From assembly GCF_003479605.1 (NCBI RefSeq), contig NZ_QUHR01000008.1:73035-137034 (forward strand): DNA of 64,000 nucleotides. Direction: 5' to 3'. The notes beneath the pieces are model-generated. The model was not told the origin of the DNA. It ran no database searches and saw only the letters and a list, made by a program, of their open reading frames with translations. This stretch comes from Roseburia sp. AF12-17LB. Its GTDB lineage: Bacteria; Bacillota; Clostridia; Lachnospirales; Lachnospiraceae. The position numbers and the translations under genes are program-made. Shown piece after piece: positions 50,991 to 55,750 of the stretch (the first letter of the stretch is position 1; every line of letters begins with the position of its first letter).

Positions 50991-51596
50991 TTAAGAAAAT
51001 TTATACACATCAATACCTAATTGTTTTAATTCCTGATAAATCCGGGCAATCGGCAGACCTACTACATTGTTGTAATCACCTTCAATTTTTTCGATAAATG
51101 CAGCTGCTTTTCCCTGAATTCCATATGCACCTGCTTTATCCATCGGTTCCCCGGTATCTATATAACGGTTCAGTTCCTCATCTGTAACCGGATACATGGT
51201 TACTTTCGTACATTCATAAAAACTGTATTGCACTTTCTTTCCATCCTCCCGCATCCAGAGCGAAACTCCGGTATAAACTTCATGGATACTTCCGGAAAGT
51301 CCTTTTAACATTGTAAATGCATCCTCCCGGTTCTTCGGTTTACCCAGCACTTTGCCATCCTTTACCACGACGGTATCTGCTCCGATTACCAGACTGTCCT
51401 GTTCTCCTACTTTGGCTTCTATCATCTTTTCATAAATTTCTCCCGCTTTCTGCTTCGCCAGATTCATGACAATCTCAGAAGGCGTATCTCCCACCTGCTT
51501 TTCTTCTCCCTGTGCCGGAAATACCAGAAAGGTAAGTCCAAGCTGCTCTAAGAGTTCTTTTCTTCGTGGGGAAGCTGATGCTAAAATTATTTTCAC
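50991..51596 (-). CDS. maf: Maf nucleoside triphosphate pyrophosphatase
   Basis: 201 residues beginning MKIILASASPRRKELLEQLG, with the signature GADTVVVKDGKVLGKP near residue 75 and the C-terminal NVVGLPIARIYQEL. Maf enzymes hydrolyse dTTP/UTP or modified nucleotides and affect septum formation in Bacillus. Its promoter lies at the edge of the long inverted repeat upstream. Confidence 0.95.
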   Translation of the reverse strand: MKIILASASPRRKELLEQLGLTFLVFPAQGEEKQVGDTPSEIVMNLAKQKAGEIYEKMIEAKVGEQDSLVIGADTVVVKDGKVLGKPKNREDAFTMLKGLSGSIHEVYTGVSLWMREDGKKVQYSFYECTKVTMYPVTDEELNRYIDTGEPMDKAGAYGIQGKAAAFIEKIEGDYNNVVGLPIARIYQELKQLGIDVYKFS

Positions 51597-51616: not shown

Positions 51617-52132
51617 GGTATATTATAAGTGAGTGGATGAAACGGTTAATAGAAAAGTTTTTACGTCTAAAGGCATTTGCTTTAACCTTTGAAATGCCGA
51701 AGTTCTAAGGCATATGTTTTCCTTTTTTCTATAAATACAGTCTTTCCAATGTTTGACAGACACATTGCACGGTTCGCTGCCTGCGGATACATGAATAGGC
51801 TTGTTAGGGGCACTTAGAATTTCGTCTGCAACCAGGCAACGCTGGTACAGGGATGTACCAGCGAGGCACAGATGAACACGGATGTGAATTTGTGCCGGTT
51901 GCCAGACGAAGTTCATATATTAGCCGAAATTCTTAGTGCCCCTTACAGGCGTATGCGGTATCCGCAGACAACGGACAGTGCGACGTGTCAGTCCAAGCGA
52001 CGGAAAGACAGTTTATCATCAAGGAAAACATACGCCTAAGAACTGCTGGTATTTCAAAGAAACTAAAACAAATGCTCTTCATACGCAAAAACTTTTCCTA
52101 TTAACACTTTCCCTCCCATCACTTATGACACC
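51617..52132 (-). repeat. Long imperfect inverted repeat with branched centre (structured RNA or MITE-like element)
   Basis: This gene-free stretch holds a ~515-nt near-palindrome. The left arm from 51617 and the reverse complement of the right arm from 52132 share long blocks: ATAAGTGA, GTTAATAG, AAAAGTTTTT, TTTGAAAT, TATGTTTTCCTT, GTCTTTCC, CTGCGGATAC and GGGGCACTNAGAATTTCG (about 70% identity by eye over ~190 nt). The centre closes with TTCGTCTG+CAACC against GGTTG+C+CAGACGAA (51821-51833 with 51897-51910) and encloses two hairpins: GCTGGTACA/TGTACCAGC with a GGGA loop (51841-51862) and GGCACA/TGTGCC (51865-51896). It fills the whole space between the addA stop and the maf promoter. No transposase and no clear target-site duplication are seen. 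Confidence 0.85.
51622..51649 (-). promoter_or_regulatory. Possible maf promoter in the end of the inverted repeat
   Basis: The minus strand reads TTAACC (51649-51644), 16 nt, perfect TATAAT (51627-51622), about 25 nt before the maf start. Both boxes lie within the last bases of the repeat arm. Confidence 0.5.
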
Positions 52133-55100
52133 TTATACTTCAATTGCCTGATTCAGCCGGAAGGAATAAAGATACTTCTCCTTCACCGGAAGCGGGAATA
52201 TCCGTTCTAACGCTTCTGCATATAAATCCAGCTGTTCTTTATACATATCCCGCAGCCTTGTGGCACTATCTACCCGGTCTGTCTTATAATCAAGCAGTAC
52301 AATTCCATCTTCTTCCACCCAGAAAACATCTATGATTCCCTGGATTAAAACCATCTCTTCTTCCATCTCATGATTTCCCATGACAAACGGCTTCTCGCGG
52401 AACAAATCATCCCGCATTGCAGCTGCTTTCATACGGGGTGCAAGCTGCGATTTTAAGAATAATTCCACGGATGGTATACGGATTAATTTTTGCATATCCT
52501 CAGATACTTTACCCATTTGTACCAGTCCTGTCAACTGCTTTTTTATATTTTCTGCAAATTCATCGGAACGATCCGGCATTTTCGTAAAATCATAACATTC
52601 CATCAGACGATGCATGGCTGTTCCACGCAGTGCTCCCTGATTTACTTCTGCTTTTCCTTCCATAAATGCCGGGACATATGGGGTAGATACTTCTTCTAAG
52701 AATTTCGGTGTAACATCCTCTTCTTCCTTTGCTGCAAGCTCCCTCATTGCCCGGTGTTTTAATTCCGATACAGAATATTTTGTCACCAGATGAATGGCAT
52801 CCGGGTGCGGATACTGATAGGATAACTGTTCCTTTATCTTTTCATACAGAGTATCCGAAACTTCCTTCGCCTGCTGCACACGCTGCCTCAATGACACATG
52901 CTCTGTAATCTGATGAGCCGCCTCGTCCTCTAACATGCTCCATGGTGTCACATAGGAAACTTTATCCCAGTTGCCGCTGGCGGCTGCCGATGGAAGAATC
53001 CACTCCAGAAAGGTCTTTGCTTCTGCCCGCTCCTTAAAATTAAGAGCTTTTCGGTTACTTCCGCAATAAATTTCTCTTATCTGCTGCAGCATTTCTTCAT
53101 CCTTGATATAACCGGTTATAATTAATTTTTCTTTGGCTCTTGTAAATGCCACATATAAGACACGAAGCTCCTCGCCAAGGCTTTCTAATTCTGTCTGCCT
53201 TGCAATTACCTTCTTAAAAAATGCAGGTACTTTTATCCGCCGGTCTTCCTCAATAATATCAAGTCCAACTCCAAGGTTCGGATGCAGTATCATCTTGCTG
53301 CGGCTGTCCTGCTTATTAAAGGATTTGCCCATTCCACTGACAAAGCAGACCGGAAATTCCAATCCCTTACTCTTGTGTATACTCATTATATTTACTGCAT
53401 CTTCATTTTCACCCACAAGTTCTGCTTCCCCAAAGTCCACATCATACTTCTGCAGCTCATCAATGTATCTTATAAAATGATAAAGTCCGCGATAACTGGT
53501 TTTCTCATATGCAATAGCTTTCTCTGACAGCATATGAAGATTTGCAAGTCTCTGTCTGCCCGCCGGCAATGCCGATGCATATCTGGCATATCCCGTTTCC
53601 TTCAATACCTTCTGCAGCAGTTCGTGCATTGGTATATCCATGGTCTGTCTACGAAGTTTTTTATATGTTTCGGAAAAACGTTTTAATTTTGCCCGCATGT
53701 CTTCATCCGCTGTTGATTCTTTTTCTGTCAGCTCTTCTTCCGCTTCCAAAAACATCTTTACGCACTGATGATACGGCTTGTCCTCTGCCAGTAACCGGAG
53801 TCTTGCAAGCTGCTCATCGGAAAGACCTGCCATTGGGGATTTTAATACTGCTGCCAGTGGAATATCCTGTCTTGGATTATCTAATATCCTAAGATAATTT
53901 AATACCGTCCTGATTTCTAATGTGGAAAAATATCCGGTTCTTGAAACCGTATGTGCCGGAATTCCATTGGCATTTAAAACCTCTGCAAAAAGGTCCGCCC
54001 ATTCACTTAAACTACGCAGTAAAATTACAATATCGCCATAGCGGACTTTCCGGAATTCTCCGGTTTCTTCGTCTACCACTTCTTCTTTGCCTACCATCTT
54101 CCGAATCCGGTCTGCAATTAATTTTGCTTCCAGTTCCTGCTTTGAAATCCGCTGTTTTGTTCCCTCTTCCAGTTCCTGTGTAGTTGTAAGAAGAATCTCA
54201 CTGTCAAAAGCATCCTCTTTCTCGCCCGCCGGATAATCTGCACCACAATACAATGCCGCCTCATCGGTATAATCCACACCACCAAGATTCCGTTTCATAA
54301 TCTGATAGAAAATATCATTGGTAAAAGTAAGCACCGTATCTCTGCTTCGGAAGTTCTTATGCAGATCAATCCGCTGGCAGGGTGCATCTGTTGTCTCATA
54401 AGTATCAAACTTTTCCATGAAAAGCTCCGGTCTCGCCAGACGAAAACGGTAAATACTCTGTTTTACATCTCCTACCATAAAGAGGTTATTCTGTCCCACA
54501 GCCTCTCTTGAAATTGCCCGGAGAATCGTCTCCTGCACATAGTTGCTGTCCTGATACTCATCAATCATAATTTCTTCATAGGCATTCTGAAATTCTTTTG
54601 CTGTCTCCGTTGGTTTCCCGGTCTCCTCCTCCACCAATATCTCTAATGCAAAATGCTCAAGGTCTGAGAAATCCACCAGATTCTTATCCTGCTTTCTTTC
54701 TGTGAAAGCATCGATAAAACGCTCCGTCACTTCAGCTAACGCTTCTGCTGATGGATGCACCAGAGTGAGCTGCTCTAAAATTTCCTGAAAAGTAAGGGCA
54801 AAGCAGTCACTTTTTAACTTTCCGATTCCATCCTTAAGCTTCTTACGTTCTGTCTTTACCTGCTCCTGCTTTTCCGGACTTCCGATATAATCCTTTGCTC
54901 TTCCTAATGTTGCAAATTTACATTTTCCTAATTCTTCATAAAAAGCCTGATAAGTATCGCAGGAAAGCAATTCTTCCATCAGCTTTGCATCCTGCTCACA
55001 GGCGTCCTCATACATGTAAGGACCGTCTGCATCCTGACAAAGTTCATGATAATGCTCTGCCTGCTCTAAATAGCCCTTTACCATCTGCTTCCCATATTCT

Positions 55101-55750
55101 ACCGTCATTTCAATAAAAGGCGCCTGTTCTAATTCCTGCTCTGTTTTTATCTCATAGCAGCTTAACGCTTCCCGAAGCCACTGCTTCGGCCATGGATAAC
55201 TCTGTGCATAGGAATAAAGTTTAAAAATCATATCCCGCACCGGTGCATCACTTCTACTGGTTCCATAACAGGAAATGAGATGCAAAAAACCCGGATGTTT
55301 TCCTTCATAACACTGTTCAAACAATCCGGTCATTACATCTTCCCGAAGAAGCTTTAACTCGCCTTCATCTCCAATCCTGAAATTCGGCTCCAGACCGATT
55401 TCATGAAAATGATTCCGAAGCACATAAAGGCAGAAACTGTCTATGGTAGTAATCTGCGCATTCTGCACCAGTGCAGCCTGCTGCTGTAATCTCACATCGG
55501 AAGGATTCTCCTGCAATGCCTTTTCCAAGGCTTTTGCTACACGCTCTTTCATCTGGGCTGCCGCCGCATTGGTGAAGGTTACCACCAGAAGATGGTCAAT
55601 ATCTACCGGATGCTTCTTATCCAATACCAGCTCTTTGATTCTCTCTACCAGTACGGCTGTCTTTCCGGAACCTGCTGCCGCAGACACTAAGATATTACGG
55701 TTTCTTAAATCAATGACCTGCTGCTGTTCTTTTGTCCATGTCATTCCCAT
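52133..55750 (-). CDS. addA: ATP-dependent helicase/nuclease subunit A (AddA)
   Basis: UvrD-type helicase and nuclease of the AddAB double-strand-break repair enzyme. 1205 residues: Walker A LVSAAAGSGKTAVLVERI near residue 23, motif II in IMIDEYQDSNYVQETIL, SIYRFRLARPELF, MSIHKSKGLEFPVCFV, EELRVLYVAFTRAKEKLIIT, and a C-terminal RecB-type nuclease with VLLDYKTDRVD. It starts 3 nt after addB, whose end provides the AAGGAGG site. The inverted repeat begins directly after its stop. Confidence 0.97.
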   Translation of the reverse strand: MGMTWTKEQQQVIDLRNRNILVSAAAGSGKTAVLVERIKELVLDKKHPVDIDHLLVVTFTNAAAAQMKERVAKALEKALQENPSDVRLQQQAALVQNAQITTIDSFCLYVLRNHFHEIGLEPNFRIGDEGELKLLREDVMTGLFEQCYEGKHPGFLHLISCYGTSRSDAPVRDMIFKLYSYAQSYPWPKQWLREALSCYEIKTEQELEQAPFIEMTVEYGKQMVKGYLEQAEHYHELCQDADGPYMYEDACEQDAKLMEELLSCDTYQAFYEELGKCKFATLGRAKDYIGSPEKQEQVKTERKKLKDGIGKLKSDCFALTFQEILEQLTLVHPSAEALAEVTERFIDAFTERKQDKNLVDFSDLEHFALEILVEEETGKPTETAKEFQNAYEEIMIDEYQDSNYVQETILRAISREAVGQNNLFMVGDVKQSIYRFRLARPELFMEKFDTYETTDAPCQRIDLHKNFRSRDTVLTFTNDIFYQIMKRNLGGVDYTDEAALYCGADYPAGEKEDAFDSEILLTTTQELEEGTKQRISKQELEAKLIADRIRKMVGKEEVVDEETGEFRKVRYGDIVILLRSLSEWADLFAEVLNANGIPAHTVSRTGYFSTLEIRTVLNYLRILDNPRQDIPLAAVLKSPMAGLSDEQLARLRLLAEDKPYHQCVKMFLEAEEELTEKESTADEDMRAKLKRFSETYKKLRRQTMDIPMHELLQKVLKETGYARYASALPAGRQRLANLHMLSEKAIAYEKTSYRGLYHFIRYIDELQKYDVDFGEAELVGENEDAVNIMSIHKSKGLEFPVCFVSGMGKSFNKQDSRSKMILHPNLGVGLDIIEEDRRIKVPAFFKKVIARQTELESLGEELRVLYVAFTRAKEKLIITGYIKDEEMLQQIREIYCGSNRKALNFKERAEAKTFLEWILPSAAASGNWDKVSYVTPWSMLEDEAAHQITEHVSLRQRVQQAKEVSDTLYEKIKEQLSYQYPHPDAIHLVTKYSVSELKHRAMRELAAKEEEDVTPKFLEEVSTPYVPAFMEGKAEVNQGALRGTAMHRLMECYDFTKMPDRSDEFAENIKKQLTGLVQMGKVSEDMQKLIRIPSVELFLKSQLAPRMKAAAMRDDLFREKPFVMGNHEMEEEMVLIQGIIDVFWVEEDGIVLLDYKTDRVDSATRLRDMYKEQLDLYAEALERIFPLPVKEKYLYSFRLNQAIEV

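What the first reader, a model, noticed from the sequence alone, without database searches (positions are those of the whole stretch)
51617..52132. A 0.5-kb near-palindrome with a branched core between addA and maf
The sequence shows arms of ~190 nt, about 70% alike by eye, closing on a 13-bp stem that encloses two hairpins, one a perfect 9-bp stem with a GGGA (GNRA-type) loop. In my hand alignment, transition differences that keep a G-U pair in the minus-strand transcript (about 13) outnumber those that do so in the plus strand (about 6). That would fit selection on an RNA read in the addA-to-maf direction, though the GNRA loop is on the plus strand. It matches no RNA class I recognise. Alternatives are a MITE-like insertion or an old inverted duplication.
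Basis: partly seen in the sequence, partly recalled or inferred. Interest (0 to 1): 0.75.

Follow-up and report, generated by a model that had tools for sequence, protein, structure and literature searches.

The report
Dispersed palindrome carrying CsrA-type RNA hairpins
The half-kilobase near-palindrome belongs to a family of DNA repeats, dozens per genome in close relatives, whose centre is a known but unexplained RNA (TwoAYGGAY) shaped like a binding site for the regulator CsrA, so it may be part of a genome-wide sponge for that regulator.

Summary
The palindrome is real: arms 51625-51790 / 51958-52126, 132 of 162 aligned columns complementary. It is not an unknown RNA: its core (51792-51957, plus strand) is Rfam RF01731 TwoAYGGAY, 98.2 bits, gathering score 43, in the same Rfam clan as E. 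coli CsrB. It is also a dispersed repeat: at least 41 matches in the nearest genome held. It lies between addA and maf in the window and that genome, but in 0 of 7 other congeners, where the gap is 13-52 nt. Copies are near-palindromes. The core covaries as RNA, its stem wobbles favour the plus strand 73:11, and it changes less than its flanks (1.7% vs 6.0%). Orientation to genes is mixed, and at 5 of 16 paired sites the core is inverted in place. Of 65 carriers 62 encode CsrA, of 332 non-carriers 148; flagellin tracks equally well. Best reading: a MITE-like repeat whose centre binds one CsrA dimer and may titrate it. CsrA binding was proposed before (PMC4333381); the dispersed, invertible palindrome and the CsrA co-occurrence seem new. 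Expression, binding and a transposase are unshown.

The parts
51625..52126 (.). whole near-palindromic element between addA and maf (both genes on the minus strand)
   Evidence: arm alignment; no room for it at the same junction in 7 of 7 other congeners
51625..51790 (.). left arm; outer arm sequence varies between copies but stays complementary to the right arm of the same copy
51958..52126 (.). right arm
51792..51957 (+). conserved RNA core, TwoAYGGAY (RF01731), 98.2 bits, full model 1-168
51839..51863 (+). hairpin 1, 10-bp stem, GGA loop; 51845-51856 GTACAGGGATGT equals the CsrA SELEX consensus RUACARGGAUGU
51865..51896 (+). hairpin 2 with the second GGA loop, 51876-51885 ACACGGATGT
51800..51824 (+). 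5' side of the core closing stem, with a CUUAG stretch kept in many copies
51925..51948 (+). 3' side of the core closing stem
52133..55750 (-). addA, upstream neighbour; its stop codon lies 6 nt from the element
50991..51596 (-). maf, downstream neighbour; a ribosome-binding-site-like AAGGAG stays between element and start codon

Best explanation
It is one copy of a dispersed, MITE-like, long near-palindromic repeat whose conserved centre is the TwoAYGGAY RNA. SHOWN: the Rfam family; many copies per genome in relatives; arms that vary between copies but pair within a copy; plus-strand RNA-level constraint on the core; mixed orientation to genes; in-place inversions; strong co-occurrence with CsrA (and with motility). 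INFERRED: plus-strand transcripts present two GGA hairpins 29-30 nt apart that one CsrA dimer bridges, so the copies together act as a distributed CsrA sink beside the FliW-CsrA-flagellin switch; the long arm helix stabilises the RNA and, as DNA, gives the terminal inverted repeats by which the element spread and through which its core flips.
For: RF01731 at 98.2 bits, same clan CL00106 as CsrB. The 23 G001 copies in a tree of 58, with the window's, form one clade, 100/99, though the bootstrap had not settled. addA-maf gap about 540 nt in window and G001, 13-52 nt in the 7 other congeners. Covariation: core 510 two-sided-change cells against 167 shuffled, slid controls 89-126; inner arms of 24 copies (23 of G001 and the window's) 130 against 42, slid 27-39. 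Core-stem wobbles 73:11, p 2e-12, copies not fully independent. Core 25 of 1493 sites changed between nine orthologous pairs, flanks 468 of 7838, p 2e-14. ACANGGANGT in 45 of 58 cores against 0.0026 per shuffled core; GGA spacing 29-30 nt in 52 of the 55 cores with two such sites, inside the 10-63 nt bridging range (passage of PMC7652899). CsrA in 62 of 65 carriers against 148 of 332 non-carriers, p 4e-16. G001 has CsrA next to FliW, FlaG and a flagellin-like gene.
Against: No target-site duplication signal in 66 copies and no larger element with one common G001 end motif in 158 kb of G001 plus the window, so transposition is not shown. The unoccupied addA-maf sites are in genomes whose Maf is only 56-63% alike. 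No clean empty site was found between close genomes; the candidates proved to be larger indels or remnants. Flagellin tracks carriers as well as CsrA does (64 of 65 against 149 of 332), so the CsrA link may reflect motility or lifestyle; neither test is corrected for kinship. Five of 58 copies lack GGA in one loop (L008, L009, L019) or both (L007, L023). Three carriers have no CsrA match: G199, G350, G389, with 1, 1 and 6 scored copies; G350 is a one-contig assembly, 99% complete, without flagellin too. Arm wobbles at 30-110 nt favour the minus strand (114:57), which plus-strand selection does not explain. No promoter or terminator excess.
Confidence: 0.55

Rival explanations
1. A purely selfish MITE-like repeat: the RNA core serves the element (for instance its own spread or its tolerance by the host), not the host.
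For: Dispersed copies, lineage-wise clustering, indifferent orientation, truncated or core-less remnants at some sites.
Against: Core changes much less than its flanks between orthologous copies and covaries as RNA, which a dead repeat would not; a living selfish element could show both.
Confidence: 0.25
2. A cis-regulatory RNA of the neighbouring gene, as Rfam's type label says.
For: Rfam type 'Cis-reg'; the copies read lie between ORFs, some in 5' regions.
Against: Of 59 entries with both neighbours called (68 examined, orthologous pairs counted twice) 19 are sense, 15 antisense, 15 divergent, 10 convergent; at 5 of 16 paired sites the core is inverted in place. Weinberg 2010 scored cis-regulation 'n'.
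Confidence: 0.07
3. A DNA-level device (cruciform, recombination or nucleoid site) whose function needs the palindrome, not an RNA.
For: Arms lack plus-strand wobble bias and show a minus excess at 30-110 nt; in-place inversions show that the arms recombine or switch template.
Against: Core wobbles 73:11 on one strand and GGA kept in both loops of 53 of 58 copies point to RNA.
Confidence: 0.1
4. A one-off inverted duplication with no relatives.
For: None beyond the palindrome itself.
Against: At least 41 matches in one genome and relatives in 58 of 334 genera sampled.
Confidence: 0.01

Closest known systems
TwoAYGGAY RNA motif (Rfam RF01731; Weinberg et al. 2010, PMC2864571, one passage seen)
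   Same: Core sequence and fold, two GGA-loop hairpins on a closing stem; full-length model match
   Different: Rfam models 168 positions; here the helix runs on to about 500 nt, and the motif is the centre of a dispersed, invertible repeat
CsrB-type CsrA-sequestering sRNAs (RF00018, clan CL00106)
   Same: GGA in hairpin loops within the ACA..GU context; same Rfam clan; occurs with CsrA
   Different: Two sites per copy in dozens of dispersed copies, against many sites in one or two RNA genes (recalled); in FliW-bearing Clostridia; binding untested
MITEs and palindromic bacterial repeats such as ERIC, NEMIS, RUP (recalled)
   Same: Short, dispersed, terminal inverted repeats, no gene of its own seen
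   Different: No target-site duplication or partner transposase found; strongly conserved, covarying RNA core
LhrC multicopy sRNA of Listeria (PMC4132741, listing and abstract start only)
   Same: One sRNA in several copies per genome
   Different: Not known to me as a palindromic repeat (recalled)

Membership tests
TwoAYGGAY RNA (RF01731) | covariance-model score above the gathering threshold over the full model | tested here: met
   98.2 bits against 43, model 1-168
TwoAYGGAY RNA (RF01731) | two GGA-loop hairpins of the AYGGAY type | tested here: met
   51839-51863 and 51865-51896; loop 2 reads ACGGAU, loop 1 AGGGAU, one base off the name's Y
CsrA-binding sRNA (CsrB type) | GGA hairpins fitting RUACARGGAUGU | tested here: met
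   exact 12-mer in 6 of 58 cores, the window's among them; ACANGGANGT in 45 of 58
CsrA-binding sRNA (CsrB type) | host encodes CsrA | tested here: met
   62 of 65 carriers; nearest genome has CsrA beside FliW; the window's own genome is not held
CsrA-binding sRNA (CsrB type) | binds and sequesters CsrA in the cell | not testable with these tools
   needs a binding assay or CLIP
CsrA-binding sRNA (CsrB type) | expressed as an RNA | not testable with these tools
   no RNA-seq at hand; no promoter or terminator excess
MITE | many dispersed copies with terminal inverted repeats and no gene of their own | tested here: met
   an inverted pair in 69 of 70 entries, the other cut by a contig end; copies
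MITE | target-site duplications | tested here: not met
   longest flank repeats like mismatched-flank controls in 66 copies, one 13-nt exception; age may have erased them
MITE | mobilised by a transposase of an autonomous relative | tested here: inconclusive
   no larger element with one common end motif in 158 kb of G001; the rest of the genome was not searched
cis-regulatory RNA | fixed orientation to the regulated gene | tested here: not met
   mixed orientations; five in-place inversions

The most novel reading that the evidence does not exclude
TwoAYGGAY is a mobile CsrA sponge: a transposable palindrome that has amplified CsrA-dimer binding sites to dozens per genome in motile, FliW-bearing Clostridia, giving these bacteria an sRNA arm of Csr control, with dosage set by copy number.
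Probability: 0.35. Interest if true: 0.8.

Novelty: new variant of a known kind. Interest (0 to 1): 0.6.

Why it matters
It gives a little-explained Rfam family an anatomy, a genomic behaviour and a likely partner. A passage of PMC7652899 says that whether FliW and sRNAs act together on CsrA in any species remains to be determined; gut bacteria with FliW, CsrA and dozens of candidate CsrA-binding RNAs would make that testable. It would also be a case of a host regulator's binding site being spread genome-wide by a repeat, and it suggests that the Rfam label 'Cis-reg' for RF01731 is wrong.

Tried and rejected
Target-site duplications: longest direct repeats between left and right flanks of 66 copies were like those between mismatched flanks, with one 13-nt exception, L050. 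Empty sites between close genomes: the L059 and L070 sites in G008 lack the element, but within 700-800 bp indels; the G001 C19 case is a 2.15-kb indel with two copies and two ORFs; the C36:33570 site holds a truncated copy in G001 and what look like the two ends alone in the relative; the L052 site holds a core-less palindrome in G008. Autonomous partner by one common G001 end motif: none. Plasmids: no match. 'Phages': 17 records matched, all listed as Bacteriophage sp. from human fecal samples; the five I opened are marked UNVERIFIED, and ten ORFs beside the element in three of them all gave cellular metabolic or housekeeping Pfam families, so I read these stretches as bacterial. That the arms evolve fast was considered and dropped: orthologous arms change less than flanks. 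Twelve loci were first oriented wrongly; this was corrected before the wobble, tree and inversion counts; the plus-strand BLAST was superseded, which used both strands.

Dropped rows: wobble-by-distance and motif counts use 58 of 70 entries (69 loci and the window), leaving out 12 orthologous or contig-edge copies; one search used all 70. Alignment A1 holds 50 copies, A2 24. L027 was fetched but not used. In the addA-maf count the gaps of three minus-strand loci print as negative and are 25, 49 and 52 nt; in four more distant genomes where both genes were found the gap is 25, 51, 87 and 1610 nt, the last not examined. The 16 paired sites: eight G007/G008 pairs and window/L035 in the same orientation, L046/L251 and C19:26062 the same, five inverted. 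L054/L068 is cut by a contig end; C36:37848 also holds a different copy. Left out: L060, whose G008 counterpart is damaged (same strand). The pairs are those I came upon, not a random sample. The neighbour calls rest on bare ORFs.

Full report
WHAT IS THERE. The near-palindrome lies at 51625-52126 between addA (52133-55750, minus) and maf (50991-51596, minus). Its arms pair in 132 of 162 aligned columns, far beyond shuffles, and both strands fold about 20 standard deviations below shuffles. The core, 51792-51957 on the plus strand, is Rfam RF01731 TwoAYGGAY at 98.2 bits, gathering score 43, over the full model; it was the only match over a gathering score in the 64-kb window. Two hairpins carry GGA loops; hairpin 1 holds GTACAGGGATGT at 51845-51856, which equals the CsrA SELEX consensus RUACARGGAUGU (passage of PMC7652899).

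A DISPERSED REPEAT. The window's own genome is not held. The nearest genome, G001, is probably Lachnospiraceae isolate RUG115: its maf contig and that of the named record have the same length, 146,548, and the same 97% match (identity inferred). Matches at E<=0.001 occur in 10 of 61 genomes (G001 and relatives), 65 of 397 of the family and 51 of 398 of the phylum (over the cut-off in 10, 63 and 34). Of 70 entries read (69 loci and the window), 69 show inverted arms running on from the core; the other is cut by a contig end. Arms reach about 30-86 nt beyond the core in nearly all G007/G008 copies (one is cut by a contig end) and up to about 230 nt in G001. Outer arms differ between copies but pair within a copy. 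In a tree of 58 cores the 23 G001 copies and the window form one clade (100/99; bootstrap not settled), which speaks for amplification within that lineage.

INSERTION AT addA-maf. In window and G001 the gap is about 540 nt; in the seven other congeners searched (G002-G008) it is 13-52 nt, too short for the element. The window and G001 copies are orthologous, with 93.8% and 97.2% identical flanks. An AAGGAG before the maf start stays outside the element.

RNA OR DNA? The core behaves as a plus-strand RNA. In 50 copies 510 cells have two-sided compensatory changes against 167 in shuffles and 89-126 in slid controls. In the core stem plus-strand wobbles outnumber minus-strand ones 73:11 over 58 copies, and the direction holds in each genome group. 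Between nine orthologous pairs the core differs at 25 of 1493 sites, arms at 46 of 1375, flanks at 468 of 7838. The inner arms of G001 copies also covary (130 cells against 42), but arms show no plus-strand wobble bias and, at 30-110 nt, a minus excess (114:57). Shared ancestry of copies may inflate it; I leave it unexplained.

NOT CIS-REGULATORY. Neighbouring ORFs, called crudely, lie sense, antisense, divergent and convergent 19, 15, 15 and 10 times among 59 entries with both sides called (68 examined, orthologous pairs counted twice). More striking, at five of 16 paired sites in related genomes the core is inverted in place: flanks match end to end (83-99% in 400-nt stretches) while the core lies on the other strand. 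The change-over points differ from site to site and lie within the arms or at their ends, which fits recombination or template switching between arms rather than a site-specific recombinase. At one of the five (C36:37848) the copy itself also differs (core 153 of 165, flanks 97%). At two further sites one genome holds a core-less palindrome or only the two ends.

THE CsrA LINK. TwoAYGGAY was proposed to bind CsrA on motif grounds in PMC4333381 (passages), and it shares clan CL00106 with CsrB. Added here: ACANGGANGT occurs in 45 of 58 cores (0.0026 per shuffled core), and the two GGA sites lie 29-30 nt apart in 52 of the 55 cores with two, within the 10-63 nt range that one dimer bridges. GGA is kept in both loops of 53 of 58 copies; L008, L009 and L019 lack it in one, L007 and L023 in both. 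Ten copies have a first loop one base shorter. Among 397 genomes CsrA occurs in 62 of 65 carriers and 148 of 332 non-carriers (p 4e-16). Flagellin does as well (64 of 65 and 149 of 332), so motility is a confounder; neither count is corrected for kinship, though carriers span 58 of 334 genera. In G001 csrA sits with fliW, flaG and a flagellin-like gene.

HOW IT MOST LIKELY WORKS. Plus-strand RNA from many copies presents paired GGA hairpins that hold CsrA dimers; the arms make a long helix that protects the core and in DNA form the inverted repeats of the element. The RNA core, its constraint, its dispersion and its inversions are shown; expression, CsrA binding, titration and a transposase are inferred. 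A purely selfish reading remains open.

LITERATURE. TwoAYGGAY and RF01731 gave 7 and 4 papers in the library. I saw passages of PMC2864571, PMC11701678, PMC4333381, PMC11661157 and PMC7657543; none of these passages calls it a repeat or mobile. PMC2864571 scores it 'RNA y, cis-reg n, switch n'. Its supplementary text was not open to me and could say more. Searches for MITE with CsrA, palindromic repeats in Lachnospiraceae and related terms listed nothing on it by title or abstract start. The library lacks most subscription papers, so the claim of novelty is only that wide.

Noticed in passing
L258:13571-13890 and L262:15470-15570; L180 about 1290-1500: Truncated, core-less or ends-only remnants at sites where a relative has a fuller TwoAYGGAY element, suggesting deletion of the hairpin core or of one arm.
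   Followed up: partly
L256:3824-5976: A 2.15-kb stretch in G001, absent from a relative, with two oppositely oriented TwoAYGGAY copies and two ORFs that I read by eye as methyltransferase-like and TetR-like; it may be a composite unit.
   Followed up: partly
phages collection, MT8354xx-MT8374xx records: Records listed as 'Bacteriophage sp.' from human faeces that look like chromosomal contigs of Lachnospiraceae near G001 in the stretches examined.
   Followed up: partly
G016:C47:139778-140356 and G016:C33:53805-54433: Pairs of TwoAYGGAY copies in opposite orientation about 240-300 nt apart; the copy of each pair that I read (L007, L023) lacks GGA in both loops.
   Followed up: no
L052 left flank: The element lies directly after what looks like an intrinsic terminator (stem and T-run); perhaps a target preference.
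   Followed up: no
window 51649-51622, minus strand: A promoter-like TTAACC-16-TATAAT (10 of 12) at the element's maf-side end, pointing at maf; 2 such sites found in the region against 1.4 expected, so it may be chance.
   Followed up: no
arms of copies, 30-110 nt from the core: Excess of minus-strand over plus-strand wobbles (114:57 over 58 copies), opposite to the core; unexplained.
   Followed up: partly
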